A DNA stretch of 20,699 bases, taken from positions 1-20,699 of the forward strand of contig JAJRVC010000435.1 in assembly GCA_024277475.1 (NCBI GenBank), given 5' to 3'. The stretch is from Deltaproteobacteria bacterium. GTDB taxonomy: Bacteria > Desulfobacterota > Desulfobacteria > Desulfobacterales > JAFDCJ01. This document shows positions 108 through 18,291 of this stretch, piece after piece. Both the position numbers and the translations under genes were made by a program. How positions within the stretch are numbered: the first letter of the stretch is position 1; each line of letters opens with the position of its first letter. Under the pieces are notes generated by a model that saw only the letters and a program-made list of their open reading frames with translations, was not told where the DNA came from and ran no database searches.

Positions 108-1079
108 TTAAATAAATAATGAGCCGCTGCTTAGTTCCATGGCCATCTGCCTTAAATCTTTCTGTTTTGTTTTTCGATCCAGCAGATCGCCAGCTTGTAC
201 ATTTCCAGCTTTAGCAACTTTTCCTATAATATGCTCAACAGATATATGGTGTTGTAATTTATTTAGCGACGGTACCTCACGCTGCCCCTGCCCTGGCAGC
301 TTCTTCTTCACCCATTCGACAAAGTCCCGGCTCCCAAGAATTGATGGTCTCGTAAAAAGTCCAAAAAAAGCCAATTATCGAATTTTATATCTTATAATTT
401 CAATAAGTTATAAGATCTAAATTTGACAATTCTGACTTTTTACGGGATTGTCAAGAATTGATTGATGAACCACTCCTTCAAATGGATTTTCAATTTTACC
501 TTCAATTGCACGGCACACATGCTCACGGCATTGGCGCCGGCCTGTTGCCGTGTCGCCACCGAAGTAGGTGCTCAACAACCAGTCATAATCGATATTCCTG
601 ATTCTTTTTCTAAGATAACAATATCCCGCAAAAGTGCTCCAGGGATAATTTATAAGATACTTTGATTTTGTTGCAATATCAGCATTTTTTAACCGACTGG
701 TACGGATCGGATTTAAATGTATATAGCGACTCAGGGGTAAAAGATACTCATCTTCATCGACCAGCAATGATTTAAACCGTCCTTGAAAAACACGGCCGCT
801 ACGGCCATTGCGGCGATTAAACCTCACGGTGCAACTGACTAAAAAATGCCGCATAAACTCGCTTAAATTAACTTGTGGTGTCTGGACAAGCAGGTGGAAA
901 TGATTGGACATCAATACGTAAGAAATGAGTTTAATGCGGTAGGTTTCACTGCTATCTATCAATCCATTCAGAAAAACCTTGCGGTCTTTGTCTGTCAGAA
1001 AGATATCCTCTTGACGGTTGCCCCGATTCATTACGTGATAATACGCACCCGGATAGTCTATTCTCAGTGGTCTCGCCAT
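108..1079 (-). pseudogene. REP-associated-type Y1/HUH transposase, interrupted by a small insertion
   Basis: This encodes a single-strand DNA transposase of the IS200/IS605-like TnpA-REP (Y1_Tnp) group, which nicks DNA through a tyrosine. The N-terminal part (1079 down to 417) begins MARPLRIDYPGAYYHVMNRG, the usual family start, and has the HUH-type motif H60-F-H62 (SNHFHLL). Tyrosines in EYLLPLSRYIHLNP (about residues 111-124) are the catalytic candidates. After residue 209 (…HQSIL) the frame runs into foreign sequence with stops TAG, TAA and TAA. The same frame resumes as GSRDFVEWVKKKL at about 334 and continues to 108. It resembles the C-terminal helix-turn-helix-like (DnaA-domain-like) tail of larger family members. 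Removing the insert plus one copy of the flanking repeat (117 bp, 39 codons) restores one frame of about 284 aa. The tail ends abruptly (ELSSGSLFI), without the usual last helices, so the 3' end is probably also lost. No good ribosome binding site precedes the ATG. Almost certainly inactive. Confidence 0.85.
335..462. mobile_element. MITE-like insertion (about 106 bp) with terminal inverted repeats and 11-bp flanking direct repeat
   Basis: The direct repeat CAAGAATTGAT lies at 335-345 and again at 452-462. Just inside are inverted ends: GGTCTCGTAAAAAGTC at 346-361 and, read on the other strand, AATCCCGTAAAAAGTC at 434-449 (13 of 16 match). The interior is AT-rich and holds a smaller perfect inverted repeat, ATCTTATAA (389-397) with TTATAAGAT (408-416). 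No protein is encoded. The insertion interrupts the transposase gene, and excision with one repeat copy restores its frame exactly, so the boundaries are well supported. They could still shift by a few bases, because TTGA next to both ends could belong to the element. The mobilising transposase is not in this window. Confidence 0.8.
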
Positions 1080-10998: not shown

Positions 10999-11763
10999 TC
11001 AAAAGCCCCGTTCCTGTCTGATTTTGTCATAGCTCTCTTTAATTTCACGAAAGCGGTTGGAGGCAAAGTCTATAAATTCCTCCGGGAGTCCTTTAGAAAC
11101 AATCGTGTCGGGATGAAAATCCTTCACGAGTTTTTTGTAACTGGACTTAATTTCCTGATTAGAAGACTCGGGTGTACAGTGCAGGATTTTGTAATATTTA
11201 TCAAAATCCTTGAAGTAGATGGCCTTAATATTTTCAAATTGCCCGTCGCTGATTTTAAAAATATCTTTTACACTCTTCAGAGAATTTTCTTCTGCGGGGT
11301 GAAGTGTACCGTCCGCTGCTGCAATTTTGAAGAGAAGGTCAAGAAAAGACAGGAGCAGCGTAGGTTGGGTTTTAACCGCTTGGTACAATTGCATTGCAAA
11401 ATCTTCGATTGAGTATTGGGACTCTCTTGCCTCGTTAAAAACCTGCCTGGCAAATTGTTTTTCTCCTTCCCCTATAGGCAAATTGCTGATGAAATCTTGT
11501 ACAACTGCAATTTCATCCCCGGTGACCACGCCATCGATCTTGGAAAGTTTGCCCATGATTGAAAATAAACTGATGAAATAGGCGGCCTGGGTCTTTTCGG
11601 TTGTCCTGAATTGAAGCCGCTGCGTGGGTCTTATTGTCTGATTGACAAAATCACCCTTATTATCAATCAGAAGGTGTCCCAAAGCCGCACCGGCAACAGC
11701 TCCAAGAGGTCCGCCGAAAATAAGACCCAATGACCCCAGCGTTAGTTTTCCAAACCAGCTCAT
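10999..11763 (-). CDS. djlA: DjlA-like co-chaperone: membrane anchor, TerB domain, J domain
   Basis: A 254-aa protein with three parts. An N-terminal glycine-rich hydrophobic segment (about residues 8-33, LGLIFGGPLGAVAGAALGH) is like the dimerising anchor of DjlA. A central TerB-like helical domain (about 55-170) contains KLSKIDGVVTGDE and KIAAADGTLHPAEEN acidic repeats. A C-terminal J domain (188-250) has the HPD motif at 217-219, which stimulates DnaK ATPase activity. Length and order match DjlA of other proteobacteria. I chose the ATG at 11763 because AAGGAG precedes it and MSWFGKL is a natural DjlA start. It is probably the first gene of a two-gene operon with the TerB protein. A 266-bp gap holding a long palindromic repeat separates it from the yhbP-like gene upstream. 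Confidence 0.9.
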   Translation of the reverse strand: MSWFGKLTLGSLGLIFGGPLGAVAGAALGHLLIDNKGDFVNQTIRPTQRLQFRTTEKTQAAYFISLFSIMGKLSKIDGVVTGDEIAVVQDFISNLPIGEGEKQFARQVFNEARESQYSIEDFAMQLYQAVKTQPTLLLSFLDLLFKIAAADGTLHPAEENSLKSVKDIFKISDGQFENIKAIYFKDFDKYYKILHCTPESSNQEIKSSYKKLVKDFHPDTIVSKGLPEEFIDFASNRFREIKESYDKIRQERGF

Positions 11764-11873
11764 ATCTTTTCTCCTTAATTTCTTTGTCTTTCGCGGATAA
11801 ACCGGGAAATGGCCCCAAAGACACAAAACAAAACTGTTTGCCATACAGCATGTTGTCAGAAAATCGATGCAAA

Positions 11874-12036
11874 GAGTTTACGAAGAAATAAATTCATAAT
11901 TTCGGGAGTTGAGGCGCCCGGCCGGCAAAACGCGGAAGCACAGGAATATCAAGCATATTTCGAGCTTCCACAACGTAGCCGGACGGGATGGATCGACGTC
12001 CAAAATGTGAAGTTATTTTTGAGTGGGCCTTAAGGG
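11874..12036 (+). repeat. Long imperfect palindrome, copy A of three
   Basis: About 160 bp whose two arms pair along most of their length. The inner stem is GCGGAAGC (11931-11938) with GCTTCC (11964-11969). The middle stem is CCCGGCCGGC (11917-11926) with GCCGGACGGG (11978-11987). An outer AT-rich arm pairs sequence around AAATAAATT with AGTTATTTTT. By eye it differs from copy B at about 17 positions. Its right end overlaps the 3' end of the yhbP-like gene and contains that gene's stop codon (TAA, read on the minus strand at 12030-12032). The open frame that crosses it on the plus strand is not a gene. Confidence 0.85.
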
Positions 12037-12542
12037 CCTAAGGTTACTTCCTCTCTGAAAGCGAATCGAATCCGGTTGTCCAGATAGTACACTAAGGAGG
12101 GCTTGAACCGGTAAAGTTTAACGCCGAAGCGCTTCCAAAAATTTTGCGGATCCATAGATGTATCTTTTTTGAAAAATTCTTTGGTAAAAGGAAATTTTTT
12201 AAGGTACACGTGCAGCACCTGAAATGCCTCCAGCCTGCCCTCGACGGCCTGGATGCTACCGCTCATTTGAAGACCTCGGATTTCCTGCCAGGTCGAACCG
12301 GATGCATATATTGCCGAAGACGCCAGGCCGTTTTCAAGGGCCTCTTTTATGTGCCTGGATTCAGGGGCAGACAAAAAATAGAATACAGCTTTGAAAAAAA
12401 CATAGTATACCGGCACAGCCCAAGCTACCTCGCCTCTGGCGGTGGCCAGTGTCATGGTAGTTTGTCCGGATGCAAGACGTCCGGCCAGATCGTTCAGCTC
12501 CTGTTTGGTTTTGGTACTGTTTGAATCACGGGATTGCACCAT
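12030..12542 (-). CDS. YhbP/UPF0306-like FMN split-barrel protein
   Basis: A 170-aa protein of the pyridoxamine-phosphate-oxidase-like split beta-barrel fold. Family-like segments are TTMTLATARGEVAWAVPVYY (28-47), FYFLSAPESRHIKEALEN (about 54-71) and a central GLQMSGSIQAVEG strand pair. The order resembles E. coli YhbP. Such proteins often bind flavin, but the actual substrate of this subgroup is unknown. The ribosome binding site is weak (CAGG a few bases upstream of ATG). Its C-terminal residues (VTLGP) and stop codon lie inside or at the edge of repeat copy A, so the original 3' end may have been replaced. It lies downstream of the NifX-like gene (124-bp gap, same strand). Confidence 0.75.
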   Translation of the reverse strand: MVQSRDSNSTKTKQELNDLAGRLASGQTTMTLATARGEVAWAVPVYYVFFKAVFYFLSAPESRHIKEALENGLASSAIYASGSTWQEIRGLQMSGSIQAVEGRLEAFQVLHVYLKKFPFTKEFFKKDTSMDPQNFWKRFGVKLYRFKPSLVYYLDNRIRFAFREEVTLGP

Positions 12543-12666
12543 GGTAACCTGACGTCCAGTTTTTATTCACTTTCCTTTCGAAAAACCCTACCCCGGATAT
12601 TGAGAATTGACGATAGGTTATTGGAAGAGGGTGAATATATCCCCAAACCATTTTGTCCGGGTTAGA

Positions 12667-13047
12667 TTAGTGCGGACAGCTGTCTCCGATACCATGCCCG
12701 GCACACGTCTGGTCCGGGGTGAACAGCGGCAGTTTGCCGGCCGTCAACAGTTCAAGATTGTCCTGCACTGAGCCCTCTGCTGCCCGATAAGCTTTAACCC
12801 CTTCCACTAAAAGCTTGCGCAAAGCACCGCCGCCGATCCCACCGACGATCACTGCGTCCACCCGCCGGCCGTTCAGGGCCTTCATCGGCTGGCAGTGGCC
12901 GTGGAGGTGATCCTGATCGGGATTTTCAATAATTTCGGTTGAATCTTGCTCGGTATCCACAACCACAAAATAGTGTGCGGAGCCGAAATGGCCATAAACC
13001 CGGCTCTCAATCCCCTTATTTTCCTGAGTGGGAAATGCTATCTTCAT
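12667..13047 (-). CDS. NifX/NafY/DINI-family iron-molybdenum cofactor-binding-like protein
   Basis: A 126-aa protein of the dinitrogenase iron-molybdenum cofactor biosynthesis fold (NifB C-terminal/NifX/MTH1175-like). It shows the family start MKIAFPTQ, then VYGHFGSAHYFVVVD and the ribonuclease-H-like core VDAVIVGGIGGGALRKL, with a GVKAYRA strand. Stand-alone members like this are common in sulfate reducers and archaea, often with no nitrogenase nearby, as here. Histidine/cysteine-rich spots (DHLHGHC; DQTCAGHGIGDSCPH at the C-terminus) suggest binding of a metal or cluster; this is inference. AGAGGT precedes the ATG by about 7 bases. An inverted repeat at 13111-13124 could be its operator. 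Confidence 0.9.
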   Translation of the reverse strand: MKIAFPTQENKGIESRVYGHFGSAHYFVVVDTEQDSTEIIENPDQDHLHGHCQPMKALNGRRVDAVIVGGIGGGALRKLLVEGVKAYRAAEGSVQDNLELLTAGKLPLFTPDQTCAGHGIGDSCPH

Positions 13048-13110
13048 CGTTATACCTCTTTGATTTCTTTTGGATTATTTGCCTTACAGCTTGCCCGGCA
13101 ATGGGTACGC

Positions 13111-13124
13111 GATCGGCACCGATC
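13111..13124. promoter_or_regulatory. Inverted repeat GATCGG-ca-CCGATC, possible operator
   Basis: A perfect 6+6 inverted repeat with a 2-base centre, 64 bp upstream of the NifX-like start codon. About 25 bp further out lies TTTAGC…GCTAAA around CCAATTGG (13151-13172). The position fits a promoter-proximal repressor site, but I recognise no regulator consensus, and repeats this short can arise by chance. Confidence 0.2.
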
Positions 13125-13396
13125 TGCCGCACAACCCTGCATGCTGCAATTTTAGCACACCAATTGGCTAAAAAAGTATCCATTTAACTTATAAACACTC
13201 AACATTATGGCTAAAAACCTCTTATGTCAAGCCCCGGATGCGGGGAACATCAAAACCTGAAACCTTCATTTTCTTAAACATGTAGCCAGATAAGGTAAAC
13301 CTTAAAATCGCAGATGAATGCTACGGGGACTATCAAGAGGTGAGTTTCCAGACGGTAATGAATACCATTTGAAAAATAGAAAGTCAAAAAATGTGT
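13125..13396. other. Intergenic stretch, no gene seen
   Basis: AT-rich DNA upstream of the NifX-like gene. It must hold that gene's promoter, but I cannot place one with confidence. A fragment CAAAACCTGAAACCTTCATT (13250-13269) recalls the CTGAAACCT motif seen elsewhere in the window. No open frame of coding character is present. Confidence 0.4.
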
Positions 13397-13576
13397 TCAT
13401 TTCAGTGGAGAAAAGAGAACTATAACCATTCTCAATTTTTTCCACCATTTAAAAACAGAGCTGACAGAAATATGAGACTTCACCGACCATTTTCTTTTTA
13501 AATGCGACACTTCTTTTTTTGAAAGTGTTTTGTCGTTCACAACCACACCACCGTGCGGATTCCAAAATGCTCCCAT
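13397..13576 (-). CDS. Possible small protein, 59 aa
   Basis: This short frame starts MGAFWNPHGGVVVNDKTLSK and is rich in Lys, Ser and Trp (KWSVKSHISVSSVFKWWKKL), with a hydrophobic end (MVIVLFSPLK). It is basic and could be a small DNA- or membrane-associated protein, or a fragment of a decayed gene. No Shine-Dalgarno sequence precedes the ATG, and an in-frame stop lies eight codons upstream. I do not recognise it. It is listed because it is the only frame with protein-like composition in a roughly 590-bp gene-free region. Confidence 0.25.
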   Translation of the reverse strand: MGAFWNPHGGVVVNDKTLSKKEVSHLKRKWSVKSHISVSSVFKWWKKLRMVIVLFSPLK

Positions 13577-13633
13577 ATCAAATCTTACAATAATCTACAG
13601 CATTCCAATTATTATGCTCCCATGAGCCGGCCG

Positions 13634-13800
13634 CTTAGGGTTTACGAAGAAATAAATTAACAATTTTGGAAGTTGAGGCGCCCGGCCCGCAAGGCGCGGA
13701 AGCACAGGAACATCAAGTATATTTCGAGCTTCCGCAACGCAGCGGGATGGGATGGATCGACGTCCAAAATGTGAAGTTATTTTTGAGTGAGCCCTTAGGG
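13634..13800 (+). repeat. Long imperfect palindrome, copy B of three
   Basis: The best-preserved copy. Reading inward, the left end AGGGTTTACGAAGAAATAAA (13637-13656) pairs with the right end GTTATTTTTGAGTGAGCCCT, and next TTTTGGA pairs with TCCAAAA. CCCGGCCCGC (13681-13690) pairs with GCGGGATGGG (13742-13751), and GCGGAAGC with GCTTCCGC. Relative to copy A, G11924 is C13688 and its partner C11980 is G13744, a compensatory exchange that keeps the pair. The element lies in an intergenic region with no nearby gene end. Confidence 0.85.
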
Positions 13801-14192
13801 TAGCGACAGTAATTAATTTTTGCCGAGGCTCTTAAGGGGGAGCAGACGAGACAACACCAGAAAAAACTGCCGTAGTCGGAAAATCCGCCCCCCCTATGCA
13901 AAAGAAGACCTGACCATTATGTAAAACAGAAATTTCAAGCAAGTGCTTGATGACAAAAGCATTCCATTTGATCCATAAATGGTTGGCCAGGCACTTCAAT
14001 TAAAGCAAAATATGTGCCATATTCCAGTTTGCAAAAATTTATTATGATATTCGGAGGATAAGTAATTTGGGTGTAGGGAGGGCTATTCATATTATGAAAT
14101 AAACTGGATAAAATTGTGAATAAAACTCCATATTCAGTGTTTAGGACCAAGCATTTTCATTACAATTATGCGCTGTTTCTCAGGGTTCCTGC
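13801..14192. other. Intergenic stretch, no convincing gene
   Basis: AT-rich sequence between palindrome copy B and the maoC-like promoter. A 71-codon minus-strand frame (13935-14150) opens with TTG, has no ribosome binding site and shows poor coding character. GAAGACCTGACC (13906-13917) loosely resembles the GATCTGACCCC near the transposase remnant. Nothing else recognised. Confidence 0.4.
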
Positions 14193-14221
14193 TTGACACA
14201 TTTTTCCGCTTTTGACATAGT
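14193..14221 (+). promoter_or_regulatory. Sigma-70-type promoter, predicted leaderless transcript
   Basis: A perfect -35 hexamer TTGACA (14193-14198), a 17-base spacer and a -10-like CATAGT (14216-14221, 4 of 6 matches). The expected transcription start, 6-8 bases further on, falls on or next to the ATG at 14228. No Shine-Dalgarno sequence lies before that ATG, which is consistent with a leaderless mRNA. Confidence 0.5.
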
Positions 14222-14227
14222 TCCGCT

Positions 14228-14707
14228 ATGAACAATTATTCTTTCAAAGTCCCGGTTGAGAACCGCTATTTCGAAGATTATGAGCCCGGATCGGTTCACG
14301 AATTCGGGACCATTTCGGTCGAAGAGTCGGATATCATAGAGTTCGCCCGGCGCTTCGACCCACAAATTTTTCATACCGTTCCTCAGGCCGCAAGGCATAC
14401 GATTTACGGTGGATTGATTGCCAGTGGGTGGCATACTGCCGGCTTGATGATGCGCTTATTTGTGGATCACTATTTATCCGGTATCGCCAGCCTCGGGTCG
14501 CCGGGAGTAGACGAATTGCGCTGGAAAAAGCCCGTTCGTCCCGGCGATACACTTTCGCTGCGGGTGACTGTCCTGGAGACAAAGCGTTCACGTTCCAAGC
14601 CGGATCGCGGGGTTCTCACTTCATTTATTGAAATCATAAATCAGGAACGTTCTATTGTGATGAGCATGAAGGCTGTCAATTTTCTGCTGTGCCGGCAGGC
14701 GTCTTGA
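14228..14707 (+). CDS. MaoC-like hotdog-fold dehydratase ((R)-enoyl-CoA hydratase type)
   Basis: A 159-aa single hotdog-domain protein expected to hydrate 2-enoyl-CoA thioesters. It starts with the characteristic RYFEDYEPGSVHEFG (13-27). The active-site helix region is FARRFDPQIFHTVPQAA (39-55), with D44 and H49 as the catalytic pair, and then GGLIASGWHTAGLMMRL (61-77). The strand DELRWKKPVRPGDTLSLRV (95-113) is the typical substrate-loop segment. Length is normal for the stand-alone family. No ribosome binding site is visible; a strong promoter directly abuts the start. No fatty-acid or polyester genes are adjacent, so the pathway is undetermined. Confidence 0.9.
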   Translation: MNNYSFKVPVENRYFEDYEPGSVHEFGTISVEESDIIEFARRFDPQIFHTVPQAARHTIYGGLIASGWHTAGLMMRLFVDHYLSGIASLGSPGVDELRWKKPVRPGDTLSLRVTVLETKRSRSKPDRGVLTSFIEIINQERSIVMSMKAVNFLLCRQAS

Positions 14708-15057
14708 TTCTTTCCGGAGCACGTCCTATAAGAGCTAAGTTGGATTATAAGCATTCACAGTTTGTAAAGGGAGTTGGCAGAGATGCAATCTGCTGTGCCG
14801 ATTGCGACACTTCGATATCTGCATTTGATATAACTAACGGATGTACAATGATTTTTTGATGATAAACGCACAGTGGGGGTTACAGTTCCCAATCGCGTAG
14901 CCGAAGAAATAGCCGGAAATGCGGCAGACTATTCCGGAGCACCTGCGGGATCTACGTGCCATTCGATATTGATTTTTGCTCTGGCAGATATGCCTGCTGG
15001 AATTGTACGGTTTATAAATCATCGATTTAGAACTTTGAAGGAAAAAAGGATTTACAA
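14708..15057. other. Intergenic stretch with a weak small open frame
   Basis: No firm gene. A frame from GTG at 14873 to TGA at 15061 (62 aa, VTVPNRVAEEIAGNAADYSG…) overlaps the next gene's start as ATGA, an arrangement typical of translational coupling. However, it has no ribosome binding site, resembles nothing I know and is matched by an open frame on the other strand. The purine-rich AAGGAAAAAAGGA just before 15058 is the ribosome binding site of the next gene. Confidence 0.35.
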
Positions 15058-16347
15058 ATGAATGATCAATTGTCCCAATACGTACGAAAACAGTTTCCAG
15101 CTCTAAAAAGAAAAGTCAATGGTTACCCTGCCGGCTATCTTGACGGCCCCGGCGGCTATCAGGTGCCGGAATGCGTGATTGCAGCCGTAAAACATTATTT
15201 TGTCAACATGAACGCCAATGTAGGGCATCAGTTTGAAACAGCGCAAAACACATCCGCCATGATTCGAGATGCACGCGGCATCTTTGCCGACTTTTTCAAT
15301 TGCAGTTGGGACGAGGTCGTCTTCGGTGCCAATATGACCACGCTGAATTTCACTCTGGCGCAAGCCCTGGTGCGGCAGTTGACGCCCGGGGATACAGTGC
15401 TGATCACTGAATTGGACCACGAAGCCAACCGGGGGCCCTGGTTGCAGTTACAGGACCGGGGTATTGATGTGGCAGATGTCGCCATGGATACCAACACCTG
15501 TACCCTCGATATGGAAGATCTCCAAAACAAGCTTTTAAAAAAACCGAAGGTGGTAGCAGTAAATTACGCCAGTAATGGGGTGGGTACCATCAGCGATGTT
15601 CAAAAAATTATTCAGATGTCTCATGAAATCGGTGCAATTGTGGTGGTGGATGCCGTTCATTATGCGGCCCACGGCCCCCTCGATGTAAAAAAACTGGATG
15701 CGGATTTTCTTTTGTGCTCCGCCTATAAATTTTTCGGACCCCACATCGGGGTGATGTATGCTAAAAAAGAGGTACTGAGCCGGCTGAACCCCCTAAATCT
15801 TCGAATCCAGCACCAGTCTCCGCCGTTTATGATTGAAACCGGCACCCTCTCCCACGAAGGAATTGCCGGTGCGGCCGCGGCGGTGGAATTTATTGCGGAC
15901 ATCGGCCTGAAATTTGAAAGTGAATTTGATGAGCAAAGCGGGGATTTGAAAAAAAACCGGAGGACTCAGATCCTGTCCGGGCTGCGGGCCTTTGAAAACT
16001 ACGAAATGGCACTGACCGAGTATTTAATCGAGGCCATCACATCCAATATTTCCAAAGCAACCCTTTATGGTCCGGCCCCGGGACATCCTCGCACCTCCAC
16101 CGTTTCTTTTACTTACGAGGGATACACCGCCGATCAGGTTGCTAAATACCTGGGAAACAGGGGGCTGTTTGTCTGGGGTGGTCATTTCTATGCCATTCGC
16201 CTGGTTGAAAAGCTGGGGCTTTTGGATCGAGGTGGACTGGTGCGGGTCGGCATTGCGCCTTACAATAGCAAAACGGAACTGGACCGTCTCATAGAAGCGT
16301 TGAGTGAGGAAGATGCACTGAAGCGTTTTGTGGAAACCCGGAGTTGA
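15058..16347 (+). CDS. Cysteine-desulfurase-like PLP protein (class V aminotransferase fold), catalytic Cys absent
   Basis: A 429-aa cytoplasmic fold-type-I PLP enzyme resembling the 'cysteine desulfurase-like, SufS subfamily' group (TIGR01976). Cofactor-site residues are visible: H121 (ELDHEAN, ring stacking), D198-A-V-H201 (VVDAVHYAAHG) and the Schiff-base lysine K224 in CSAYKFFGPH. The loop that carries the persulfide-forming cysteine in SufS/CsdA is here WGGHFYAIRL (about 373-382), with no cysteine. The protein's four cysteines (39, 82, 148, 220) all lie elsewhere, so it is probably not a true sulfur donor. Related sequences often share this trait; the reaction is unknown. AAGGA lies about 9 bases before the ATG. 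It is followed by ywbE (45-bp gap), possibly co-transcribed. Confidence 0.9.
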   Translation: MNDQLSQYVRKQFPALKRKVNGYPAGYLDGPGGYQVPECVIAAVKHYFVNMNANVGHQFETAQNTSAMIRDARGIFADFFNCSWDEVVFGANMTTLNFTLAQALVRQLTPGDTVLITELDHEANRGPWLQLQDRGIDVADVAMDTNTCTLDMEDLQNKLLKKPKVVAVNYASNGVGTISDVQKIIQMSHEIGAIVVVDAVHYAAHGPLDVKKLDADFLLCSAYKFFGPHIGVMYAKKEVLSRLNPLNLRIQHQSPPFMIETGTLSHEGIAGAAAAVEFIADIGLKFESEFDEQSGDLKKNRRTQILSGLRAFENYEMALTEYLIEAITSNISKATLYGPAPGHPRTSTVSFTYEGYTADQVAKYLGNRGLFVWGGHFYAIRLVEKLGLLDRGGLVRVGIAPYNSKTELDRLIEALSEEDALKRFVETRS

Positions 16348-16392
16348 TAAGGATCTAACGTTGCAACATTGGAGTAAAGAGGAGTGTTTCCA

Positions 16393-16587
16393 GTGGATGG
16401 AAAAAACCGGAAAGATATAAAATCCGGAGTTGAAGTCGATATCGTGCTGAAAAAGGACCAGCACACGGGGAGACTAACCCGGGGTGTTGTAAAGGATATT
16501 TTGACCAAATCGCCTCGTCATCCTCATGGCATCAAGGTACGGTTGACTGATAGCCAGGTGGGAAGGGTTAAGAAAATCCTCGCATAA
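16393..16587 (+). CDS. ywbE: YwbE family protein
   Basis: A 64-aa basic protein of the YwbE (DUF2196) family with nearly the whole conserved sequence: DGKNRKDIKSGVEVDIVLKK, then TGRLTRGVVKDILTKSPRHP, then HGIKVRLTDSQVGRVKKIL. The fold is a small beta-barrel, and an RNA- or nucleic-acid-related role is often supposed but not shown. I use the GTG at 16393, giving the usual MDGK start, because GAGGAG lies 8 bases upstream. The in-frame GTG at 16384 overlaps that ribosome binding site. The stop is 20 bp before palindrome copy C. Confidence 0.92.
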   Translation: MDGKNRKDIKSGVEVDIVLKKDQHTGRLTRGVVKDILTKSPRHPHGIKVRLTDSQVGRVKKILA

Positions 16588-16606
16588 AGGCAGGGGAGTC
16601 GCTATC

Positions 16607-16764
16607 CGTGATTCAAAAAATTTGCCCAATTTTAGAAGTTGAGGTGCCCGGTCGGCAAGACGTGGAAGCACAGAAATATCAAACACATTTCGAGCTTCCG
16701 CAACGCAGCCGGACGGGATGGATCGGCGTCCAAAATGTAAATTTATTTTTGAGTGAGCCCTTAG
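16607..16764 (+). repeat. Long imperfect palindrome, copy C of three
   Basis: The most diverged copy, especially in its left outer arm (ATTCAAAAAATTTGCCCAAT). It retains the core: AAGTTGAGG, CCCGGTCGGC (16648-16657) facing GCCGGACGGG, and GTGGAAGC facing GCTTCCGC, with a T-G wobble in each stem. The loop arm GAAAT…ATTTC pairs exactly here. It has the same orientation as copies A and B and lies just downstream of ywbE, where its hairpin could end or stabilise that transcript. A minus-strand open frame crossing it is not a gene. Confidence 0.8.
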
Positions 16765-16868
16765 TCCTGCGAAGCTGACACTTTTTTCGTAAATACGCAT
16801 CCCAACGCAGTCCGGGGACGAGAATGGAACGTCTGAGGCTTTGAACCCGTAAACGCTTATCCTCCCCT

Positions 16869-16894
16869 TTATATAAAACCGTTATATAAAACCG
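16869..16894. repeat. Tandem 13-bp repeat, two copies
   Basis: TTATATAAAACCG occurs twice head-to-tail (16869-16881 and 16882-16894), followed by TTTATG. It lies about 35 bp upstream of the -35 hexamer for the riboswitch transcript. It may be a protein-binding site or simple slippage; I cannot tell. Confidence 0.4.
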
Positions 16895-16928
16895 TTTATG
16901 CCTGATTTCACACCTTAAATTAAATCTC

Positions 16929-16957
16929 TTGACAAATAGAGACTTTTTAATTAACGA
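16929..16957 (+). promoter_or_regulatory. Candidate promoter of the riboswitch-cbiK transcript
   Basis: A perfect TTGACA at 16929-16934 lies just upstream of the riboswitch. With a 17-base spacer the -10 position reads TAACGA, a poor match, so the exact -10 is uncertain. Placement right before the aptamer supports it. Confidence 0.4.
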
Positions 16958-16960
16958 GAG

Positions 16961-17150
16961 TACAGGGTGCGCAAGCTTAATAGGGAATCCCGTGAGAATC
17001 GGGAGCGGTCCCGCTGCTGTAACCCCGCTCCAGCTGCATTTTATCGTCTGGAGAACCCTTTTCGCCGTAGTACGCCACTGTTTCGATTGATCGGAATGGG
17101 AAGGCTGTGAAAAGGGCGGGGGAGCCAGAAGACCTGCCTTAAAACATAAC
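16961..17150 (+). promoter_or_regulatory. Cobalamin (adenosylcobalamin) riboswitch aptamer
   Basis: The conserved parts are present in order: GGGTGCGC (16965-16972), GGGAATCCCGTGAGAATCGGG (split around 16983-17003), GGTCCCGCTGCTGTAA (17007-17022), a variable arm, and the B12 box AGCCAGAAGACCTGCC (17123-17138). Binding of a cobalamin should close the expression platform and favour the intrinsic terminator at 17218-17255, lowering cbiK expression when B12 is plentiful. This matches the role of the downstream gene in cobalt insertion for B12 synthesis. Exact 5' and 3' limits are approximate. Confidence 0.95.
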
Positions 17151-17217
17151 CAGACCTCTGCGAATAGACAGAGAAAATGGTTAAATAAAAAATAAAAGGG
17201 TTAAGTAAACTGGGTGC

Positions 17218-17260: not shown

Positions 17261-17301
17261 CTATGGTTTACCCTAATTTAACGAACAAAAGGAGGTTTAA
17301 A

Positions 17302-18291
17302 ATGATCAAAAAAGTTTTATTGATTGCATTTGCAGGTATTATTATAGTCAGTGGGAATACTCCATCACTTCTAGCCGGTAGTCAGACGTCGAAACATGAC
17401 ACAAGTGTGGCCATCATTCTGGCCAGTTTCGGCACCACCGTGCCGTCGGCCGTCGCCTCCATCACCAATATCCAGGATCAGATCAAAAAGGCGTTTCCGG
17501 CTGTTCCGGTAAAGATGACGTTCACCTCCAACATCATTCGTTCCATCTGGAAGAAACGACAGGCGAATGCGCAAAAATGGCTGGATCAGGGTATCCCCGA
17601 GGAGGTTCTTTATGTCAAAAACATCATTGCCACCATCGGGGATCTAAGGGAGGAAGGCTACCGCAACATCATCGTGCAGCCCACCCATATTTTCTTCATG
17701 GAGCAGGCGCTGGATTTAAGCTCCTACGTCAATGCCTTTGCGTCCATAAAAACGCTCAAGGAAAAATGGATGCCCTTTGATAAAGTGGTCATGGGAAGGC
17801 CTGCTCTGGGAGGTTACGGCGATAAATATGATTATCATAAGGATCTGGAAAAAGCCTTAAAAACACTGGCCGGCGATGTCGAACTGGCCCGAAAAAATGA
17901 TGCCATACTGGTCTACATGGGCCATGGCAACGAGCACTGGTCAAGTGGAATTTACATGGAAGCCGCCAAAAAGATGCGGGAGCTCTACCCGGATGTGGTG
18001 ACTTATGTCGGTTCCGTGGAAGGTTTTCCGCTAATCGGGGATATTGCCCGTTATCTGTCCCGTTTTGACTCCGGAAAAATTGTGTTAAAACCGTTTATGA
18101 TTGTCGCCGGCGACCACGCCGTTAATGATATGGCCGGTGCCGGGGAAGATTCGTGGAAAACTATTCTGACCAAACAAGGCTTTGATGTCGTCCCCGTACT
18201 CGAAGGTTTGGGTTCCAATGACGCCTTTGCCCAAATCTTTGTCGACCACATTAAAGATGCCGCCCGGGACAATGGCATCAAACTGAAATAA
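17302..18291 (+). CDS. cbiK: Sirohydrochlorin cobaltochelatase CbiK, exported (periplasmic type)
   Basis: A 329-aa class II chelatase of the CbiK family that inserts Co2+ into sirohydrochlorin in the anaerobic B12 route. Active-site histidines are recognisable: H208 in YMGHGNEHW and H272 in VAGDHAVND. The family start is AIILASFGTT (37-46), and PTHIFFMEQ (127-135) is a further conserved segment. The N-terminus MIKKVLLIAFAGIIIVSG…LLAG (1-26) is a Sec-type signal peptide, as in the periplasmic CbiK-P known from Desulfovibrio, whose in vivo role is thought to concern metal or haem handling rather than core B12 synthesis. I chose the ATG at 17302 because AAAGGAGG lies 7 bases upstream; an in-frame ATG at 17263 would spoil the signal. 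Controlled by the cobalamin riboswitch and attenuator. No transporter follows. Confidence 0.95.
   Translation: MIKKVLLIAFAGIIIVSGNTPSLLAGSQTSKHDTSVAIILASFGTTVPSAVASITNIQDQIKKAFPAVPVKMTFTSNIIRSIWKKRQANAQKWLDQGIPEEVLYVKNIIATIGDLREEGYRNIIVQPTHIFFMEQALDLSSYVNAFASIKTLKEKWMPFDKVVMGRPALGGYGDKYDYHKDLEKALKTLAGDVELARKNDAILVYMGHGNEHWSSGIYMEAAKKMRELYPDVVTYVGSVEGFPLIGDIARYLSRFDSGKIVLKPFMIVAGDHAVNDMAGAGEDSWKTILTKQGFDVVPVLEGLGSNDAFAQIFVDHIKDAARDNGIKLK

What the first reader, a model, noticed from the sequence alone, without database searches (positions are those of the whole stretch)
11874..16764. Three-copy family of about 160-bp long palindromes with a compensatory base-pair change
Copies at 11874-12036, 13634-13800 and 16607-16764 share a core and orientation. 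The two arms pair along most of the element (outer AT-rich arm, CCCGG/CGGG stem, GGAAGC/GCTTCC stem, short loop arm). Between copies A and B, G11924-C11980 becomes C13688-G13744; copy C shows G-T wobbles in its stems. Conserved pairing across diverged copies suggests selection or mobility acting on the folded form, for example a palindromic MITE, a REP/BIME-like unit moved by a single-strand transposase, or a transcribed structured RNA. Three copies in 5 kb is dense. I cannot name the family.
Basis: seen in the sequence. Interest (0 to 1): 0.75.

Follow-up and report, generated by a model that had tools for sequence, protein, structure and literature searches.

The report
Mobile hairpin repeat in sulfate-reducer DNA
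Three copies of a roughly 160-base DNA repeat that folds back on itself sit between genes here; relatives at unrelated sites elsewhere suggest that it is a small parasitic element that spreads around genomes, of a known general kind but in a family we could not name.

Summary
Three copies (A 11871-12032, B 13635-13797, C about 16605-16763) share one imperfect palindrome (B 90%, C 77% to A). A and B fold far better than shuffles, C modestly. In five copies, 7 of 56 pairs changed on both sides, including the named one. The family reaches further: a Desulfosarcina plasmid (80%), a probably misbinned MAG contig (96% to B), and a ~200-bp relative with rebuilt stems but the same ends and tip. Flanks are unrelated, so the unit has moved. 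Its ends are an 18-bp inverted repeat bounded by TTA, in one orientation where legible. No transposase or Rfam match belongs to it. Best reading: a non-autonomous REPIN/ERIC-like hairpin element. Kept pairing, a G-T over A-C excess in several copies and one-way TTA suggest that the folded top strand matters, perhaps as single-stranded DNA during transposition; this is inferred from few, related copies. The Y1 transposase at 417-1079 is not flanked by it. Known kind; I found no description of the family. The host genome was not held: copy number and empty sites are untested.

The parts
11871..12032 (+). Copy A of the palindromic element; left end worn (AAAGAG in place of TTAGGG), right end ...GGGCCTTA
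   Evidence: (CM 173.1 bits). Reading the right end as TTA assumes a one-base deletion; without it the triplet is TAA
13635..13797 (+). Copy B, intact: TTA - 157 bp - TTA
   Evidence: (CM 193.1 bits)
16605..16763 (+). Copy C, most diverged copy of the window; left end partly deleted, right end ...GAGCCCTTA intact
   Evidence: (CM 146.7 bits)
13638..13655 (+). Left terminal inverted repeat of B (GGGTTTACGAAGAAATAA)
   Evidence: read; aligned with other copies
13777..13794 (+). Right terminal inverted repeat of B (TTATTTTTGAGTGAGCCC)
   Evidence: read
13635..13637 (.). TTA triplet at left boundary of B (3-bp target duplication, or fixed target triplet)
13795..13797 (.). TTA triplet at right boundary of B
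11939..11964 (+). Hairpin tip of A: CACAGGAATA...TATTTCGAG with asymmetric ACA/GA (3 by 2) internal loop
   Evidence: same block in G013a, nearly so in G013b
13703..13728 (+). Hairpin tip of B (CACAGGAACA...TATTTCGAG)
16669..16694 (+). Hairpin tip of C (CACAGAAATA...CATTTCGAG)
   Evidence: read; aligned; fold

Best explanation
A non-autonomous mobile hairpin element (MITE of the REPIN/ERIC/YPAL kind), about 157 bp between two TTA triplets, found in this window, on a Desulfosarcina plasmid and on contigs of two further bins. Shown: closely similar units at unrelated places; an 18-bp inverted repeat at the outer ends; a hairpin whose stems change sequence between copies while staying paired; a tip kept in most copies. 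Inferred: an enzyme encoded elsewhere recognises the ends and/or the tip of the folded top strand and inserts it 3' of (or at) TTA in a fixed orientation, as single-strand (HUH-type) transposases do (that behaviour is recalled). Possible side effect (inferred): where transcribed, a copy places a long hairpin near the 3' end of the neighbouring gene.
For: Dispersal: B and the L002 copy are 96% identical but lie in different places (between divergent genes; 25 nt after a rarA-type stop codon); the BuS5 plasmid copy is 80% identical and lies between annotated genes. Flanks, 40 nt compared without gaps over all pairs of 6 copies, agree at 5-18 of 40 positions, the highest being the left flanks of A and B. 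Ends: left and right 18-mers match as inverted repeats at 16 of 18 positions in BuS5 and in G013a (read); TTA at 4 of 6 left ends (A and C worn) and at 5 of 5 right ends, L002 being cut off by its contig end and G013b not counted because it lacks these ends. Fold: 95.8% of 262 cells paired against 31-49% with partners slid by 1-3 columns; 7 pairs changed on both sides, reached by 3 of 500 shuffles. Top strand: lower energy than the complement in 7 of 7 copies with RNA and with DNA parameters; G-T to A-C oppositions by a strand-symmetric alignment (transitions scored neutral): A 9:4, B 7:3, C 8:7, L002 4:4, BuS5 8:3, G013a 11:0, G013b 4:1. Tip: a 3 by 2 internal loop in the folds of 6 of 7 copies, BuS5 excepted.
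Against: No transposase with these ends was found, and no empty site was available. One-way TTA rests on at most six insertions, and A's right end needs a one-base deletion to read TTA. RNAalifold's covariation term was slightly unfavourable (+1.16), and one of five covariation measures, further pair types, was reached by 75 of 500 shuffles. The G-T excess is missing in C and L002; a coarser alignment gave 28:16 over six related copies with no copy significant alone; counted on the consensus structure, itself derived on the top strand, G013a shows only 6:5; the 23:4 total (p 0.0003) uses the three most diverged copies, chosen afterwards. The copies share ancestry, so 7 of 7 is not seven independent cases, and an unrelated palindrome at 341-454 shows a similar energy difference. 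BuS5 has lost the tip loop.
Confidence: 0.6

Rival explanations
1. A classical MITE: deletion derivative of a DDE-type insertion sequence, moved as double-stranded DNA by terminal inverted repeats with a 3-bp TTA target duplication (as some IS5/PIF-Harbinger-like elements make; recalled, not from a call). The palindromic interior is a by-product. (The rivals overlap with one another and with mobility as such, so the odds do not sum to one.)
For: 18-bp terminal inverted repeats and TTA on both sides in B, BuS5 and G013a; outside annotated or plausible genes; no reading frame is open in all copies and no ATG-started frame inside a copy exceeds 41 codons.
Against: Does not explain why the interior stays paired while its sequence changes, nor the kept tip, nor why the triplet has not been seen as a clear TAA relative to the element. 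No insertion sequence with these ends was met in 40 genomes searched with the right-end pattern: besides the two ends of the G013a element there was one match, inside a 518-codon frame. The host lineage itself could not be searched.
Confidence: 0.25
2. A structured RNA or mRNA-processing element: transcribed with its neighbours, the top-strand fold is what selection sees (for instance as an RNase III or mRNA-stability element), and its dispersal is a side issue.
For: Top strand folds better in 7 of 7 copies, with a clear G-T excess in 5 of 7; asymmetric tip loop in 6 of 7 folds; 6 of 7 copies lie within about 90 nt after a stop codon. ERIC and Correia copies are reported to act this way in transcripts (passages of PMC10969869 and PMC2229807).
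Against: Orientation relative to that gene is mixed: sense for C, L002, BuS5 and G013b, antisense for A and G013a; B lies between divergent genes. Contexts share no evident function. No Rfam match at E up to 5; no terminator-like site in the copies and one weak promoter-like match (9 of 12, minus strand, in C).
Confidence: 0.2
3. Palindrome upkeep by mutation: hairpin-templated replication errors copy one arm onto the other, so compensatory changes arise without selection on the fold.
For: Known mechanism for imperfect palindromes (recalled); would give paired changes in a non-functional element.
Against: Would turn wobbles into exact pairs rather than keep them: the T-G pair near the ends (columns 8/197 of A3) is present in 5 of the 5 copies that hold both columns, and two further wobbles in 5 of 5 copies of A2.
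Confidence: 0.15

Closest known systems
REPIN (REP doublet forming a hairpin), linked to RAYT/TnpA-REP (PMC3116915, passages seen)
   Same: Conserved inverted ends, less conserved interior kept as a hairpin with compensatory changes on both sides, extragenic, non-autonomous.
   Different: Ends carry no GTAG/CGTC tag; length 157-196 bp between the TTA triplets; no RAYT-type gene flanked by this repeat was found in the window, the only part of the genome available.
ERIC / RU-1 and Correia/NEMIS elements (PMC10969869 and PMC2229807, passages seen)
   Same: Small intergenic elements with terminal inverted repeats whose transcripts fold.
   Different: Most such elements have TA at their termini (PMC2229807 passage); here the boundary is TTA on both sides. 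A direct sequence comparison with ERIC or Correia was not made.
YPAL / RU-2 of Yersinia (PMC2229807, section 11 read)
   Same: About 168 bp, palindromic, intergenic, termini without the TA motif.
   Different: YPAL inverted repeats are internal and its target duplications vary from 3 to 26 bp; here the inverted repeats are terminal and the triplet is constant where legible.
TIR repeats of TIRtrons / TIRYT transposases (PMC3733652, section 16 read)
   Same: Y1 transposase relatives accompanied by long inverted repeats, some of which form dispersed families.
   Different: The GGGGWSAS-type motif of some of those TIRs is not part of the element's ends; it occurs instead beside the window's own Y1 gene.

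Membership tests
REPIN / REP-BIME | Inverted conserved ends enclosing a hairpin-forming spacer with compensatory changes | tested here: met
REPIN / REP-BIME | REP units tagged with GTAG or CGTC at the foot | tested here: not met
   Legible ends are GGGTTYRC.../...GAGCCC bounded by TTA
REPIN / REP-BIME | RAYT gene in the genome flanked by the same repeat | tested here: inconclusive
   The Y1_Tnp gene at 417-1079 is not flanked by it: the model scan of the window gives copies A-C only (with their reverse strands) at E below 1; the rest of the genome is not held
REPIN / REP-BIME | High copy number per genome | not testable with these tools
   host genome not held; 3 copies in 20.7 kb, 1 in the 108.6-kb BuS5 plasmid
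MITE of the ERIC/Correia kind | Terminal inverted repeats | tested here: met
   16 of 18 bases in BuS5 and G013a (read)
MITE of the ERIC/Correia kind | TA termini / TA target duplication | tested here: not met
   TTA on both sides; the bases next to the right end are TT, not TA
MITE of the ERIC/Correia kind | Target duplication proved by an empty site | not testable with these tools
   no orthologous empty site available
MITE of the ERIC/Correia kind | Autonomous insertion sequence with the same ends | tested here: inconclusive
   none in 40 genomes by end pattern; no convincing match in phages, and in plasmids BuS5 alone; the host lineage could not be searched
Rfam RNA families | Match to a known structured RNA | tested here: not met
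   0 matches at E up to 5 in 11800-16900; only the cobalamin riboswitch in the window at gathering scores

The most novel reading that the evidence does not exclude
The element moves as a folded top-strand single-stranded DNA hairpin, handled by an unidentified HUH-type enzyme that reads its asymmetric tip loop and cleaves next to TTA in a fixed orientation: a REPIN-like class that does not use REP tags, spread among sulfate reducers and possibly to another phylum.
Probability: 0.2. Interest if true: 0.6.

Novelty: new member of a known kind. Interest (0 to 1): 0.4.

Why it matters
Hairpin repeats of the REPIN, ERIC and YPAL kinds are, as I recall, best known from gamma-proteobacteria, and the REPIN paper calls their spread an unresolved issue (PMC3116915 passage). 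A family in Desulfosarcina-like sulfate reducers, with legible ends, an apparently one-way TTA boundary and changing but paired stems, would let the single-strand and double-strand models be told apart from sequence alone once many copies are collected. It is also a practical annotation point: such hairpins near gene 3' ends could be mistaken for terminators or RNA genes.

Tried and rejected
Rfam: nothing for the element. Terminator or promoter role: no terminator-like site in the copies; 10 promoter-like sites in the stretch against 7.6 (sd 2.6) in shuffles, one of them in C. Link to the window's Y1 transposase: a GGGGTCAG motif lies at 1125-1132 on its strand and its 3' end carries a different palindrome. 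Protein coding: no frame open in all copies.

Viral carriage: 6 scans of viral contigs with six patterns gave 0. Phages: none at E 1e-5; 19 and 2 records at E 6 and 0.2 cover only 12-18% of the query. Plasmids: BuS5 is the only convincing record; the others (8, 1, 1, E 0.5-6) cover 13-22%. Searches count a second place in the BuS5 record that was not listed and not inspected; the model finds only the one copy there, on both strands. One search used a wrong stretch (flank, not element) and is void. Model matches near 5680-5746 of L001 (E 0.003) are a hairpin beside CCAACGGTATT-type repeats, judged unrelated by eye.

Cross-phylum spread: weakened. L002 lies in a MAG labelled Calditrichota that holds a second rarA (53% identical), so that contig is probably foreign there; its trinucleotide make-up is nearer the window than G013 or the BuS5 plasmid. 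The G013 contig is composed like nine other stretches of its bin, but one of its genes recurs in only 2 of 40 genomes including itself, and model matches in that bin lie on that contig only (in which 72 of 762 first-look candidates were scored). Its owner is undecided. In one search the comparison with G001 is invalid because one fetched stretch (L061) read as N.

The tip pattern in the 40 genomes hit 5 further places besides the two on the G013 contig; by eye none of the 5 folds as a long palindrome. An attC site was considered and dropped from memory of its core sequence, without a call.

Literature: searches. Among the papers listed (often only the top of many: for example 15 of 641, 10 of 113, 8 of 19) no title or abstract start names such a repeat in Desulfosarcina or relatives; 'palindromic repeat' in the Desulfococcus multivorans paper concerns CRISPR (passages). 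Most subscription papers are not held, so this is weak evidence of absence.

Full report
What is there. The window holds three same-direction copies of one imperfect palindrome: A 11871-12032, B 13635-13797, C about 16605-16763. The repeat finder gives 90% and 77% identity of B and C to A, and the folds beat dinucleotide shuffles with z -6.3, -6.9 and -2.4. A covariance model built from six copies, these three included, finds them at 173, 193 and 147 bits; apart from their own reverse strands nothing else in the window reaches E 1. The named compensatory pair (G11924-C11980 in A, C13688-G13744 in B) is right.

It is a dispersed family. A Desulfosarcina sp. BuS5 plasmid carries a copy, 80% identical over 98% of the query, between annotated genes; it is the only one of 72,556 plasmid records with a match at E 1e-5. 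One strict scan of genome contigs found one more, L002, 96% identical to B over 141 bases before the contig ends, 25 nt after the stop codon of a rarA-type gene. That pattern fixes 28 bases and would itself miss the BuS5 copy, so it says little on abundance. The L002 contig is labelled Calditrichota, but its bin has a second rarA at 53% identity and the contig is nearer the window in trinucleotide use than the other sequences compared: it is probably from a relative of the window's host. In 40 genomes of that phylum, 2 held a match: the L002 bin and G013. The G013 copy (G013a) is longer (202 bp with both TTA), keeps the ends and the tip, and has different and extra stems that are again largely paired. 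A second, tentative relative on the same contig (G013b, model E 0.0016 for that genome) shares the tip nearly but not the ends.

Anatomy. From outside in: TTA; an 18-bp inverted repeat (GGGTTCGCGCAAAAATAA on the left, TTATTTTTTCGCGAGCCC on the right in G013a); paired arms; a tip CACAGGAATA...TATTTCGAG with an ACA/GA internal loop, kept exactly or nearly so except in BuS5, where the tip has become fully paired. TTA stands at 4 of 6 left ends and 5 of 5 right ends, in one orientation; A's right end needs a one-base deletion to read so, and G013b is left out because it lacks these ends. Flanking 40-mers agree at 5-18 of 40 positions between copies, that is, they are unrelated or nearly so; the highest value is for the left flanks of A and B.

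Is the fold kept? Over five copies (A, B, C, L002, BuS5), 56 pairs, 95.8% of 262 cells are standard pairs against 31-49% with slid partners; 7 pairs show double changes (3 of 500 shuffles reach this), the covariation score is reached by 0 of 500, but the number of further pair types by 75 of 500, and RNAalifold's covariation term was slightly unfavourable at +1.16. The structure was derived from these same sequences and the copies are related, so this is good but not final evidence. G013a adds a further case: stems replaced, pairing kept (71 exact pairs by the symmetric alignment).

Which strand? The top strand has the lower energy in 7 of 7 copies with RNA and with DNA parameters. A strand-symmetric hairpin alignment gives G-T to A-C counts of 9:4, 7:3, 8:7, 4:4, 8:3, 11:0 and 4:1 for A, B, C, L002, BuS5, G013a and G013b. 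Against this: the copies share ancestry, two show no real excess, a coarser alignment of six copies gave 28:16 with no single copy significant, the consensus-structure count for G013a is 6:5, and the unrelated palindrome at 341-454 shows a similar energy difference. For the three most diverged copies, picked afterwards, the total is 23:4. I take this as moderate evidence that the folded top strand, as RNA or as single-stranded DNA, is what is kept.

Context. A ends at the stop codon of ORF 12030-12542(-) and lies 26 nt before the start of ORF 10999-11844(-) (TerB and DnaJ domains); B lies between divergent genes 12667-13047(-) and 14228-14707(+); C follows a DUF2196 gene 16393-16587(+) by 17 nt. 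Of seven copies, 6 lie within about 90 nt after a stop codon, four sense and two antisense to that gene. This is what intergenic mobile repeats look like and does not point to one regulatory function.

Mover. None identified. The window has a Y1_Tnp gene at 417-1079(-), but the element does not flank it; beside it stand a GGGGTCAG motif, which fits the GGGGWSAS motif described for some TIRYT transposases (PMC3733652, section 16 read), and a different 114-bp palindrome at 341-454. So the window offers a transposase of the right broad type without evidence that it serves this element.

Comparison. Conserved inverted ends, a changing but paired interior and an extragenic location are what was described for REPINs, where compensatory changes are said to be common (PMC3116915, passages). 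The element fails the REP tag test, and the RAYT-flank test could be made in the window only, where it fails. ERIC, Correia and YPAL are the other near relatives in kind (PMC10969869 passages; PMC2229807 passages and section 11), differing in boundary sequence. I therefore file it as a new, unnamed family of a known kind.

Limits.

Noticed in passing
window 417-1079 (-): Y1_Tnp (PF01797) gene of RAYT/TIRYT type, with GGGGTCAG 45 nt upstream of its start (1125-1132), fitting the GGGGWSAS motif of some TIR-associated tyrosine transposases.
   Followed up: partly
window 341-454: A different 114-bp palindrome (arms TTGATGGTCTCGTAAAAAGTC / GACTTTTTACGGGATTGTCAA) overlapping the 3' end of the Y1 transposase gene; its top strand also folds better than its complement.
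   Followed up: partly
window 16948-17155 (+): Cobalamin riboswitch (RF00174, 85.1 bits) before a CbiK-like cobalt chelatase gene 17263-18291 (PF06180).
   Followed up: no
L002 (JAJRYW010000180.1), G001: Contig carrying a rarA-type gene in a MAG labelled Calditrichota that has a second rarA at 53% identity: probably a foreign contig in that public genome.
   Followed up: partly
L001 5345-5510 and 5680-5752 (BuS5 plasmid): Repeated CCAACGGTATT-type units and a nearby hairpin, possibly plasmid iterons; judged unrelated to the element by eye.
   Followed up: no
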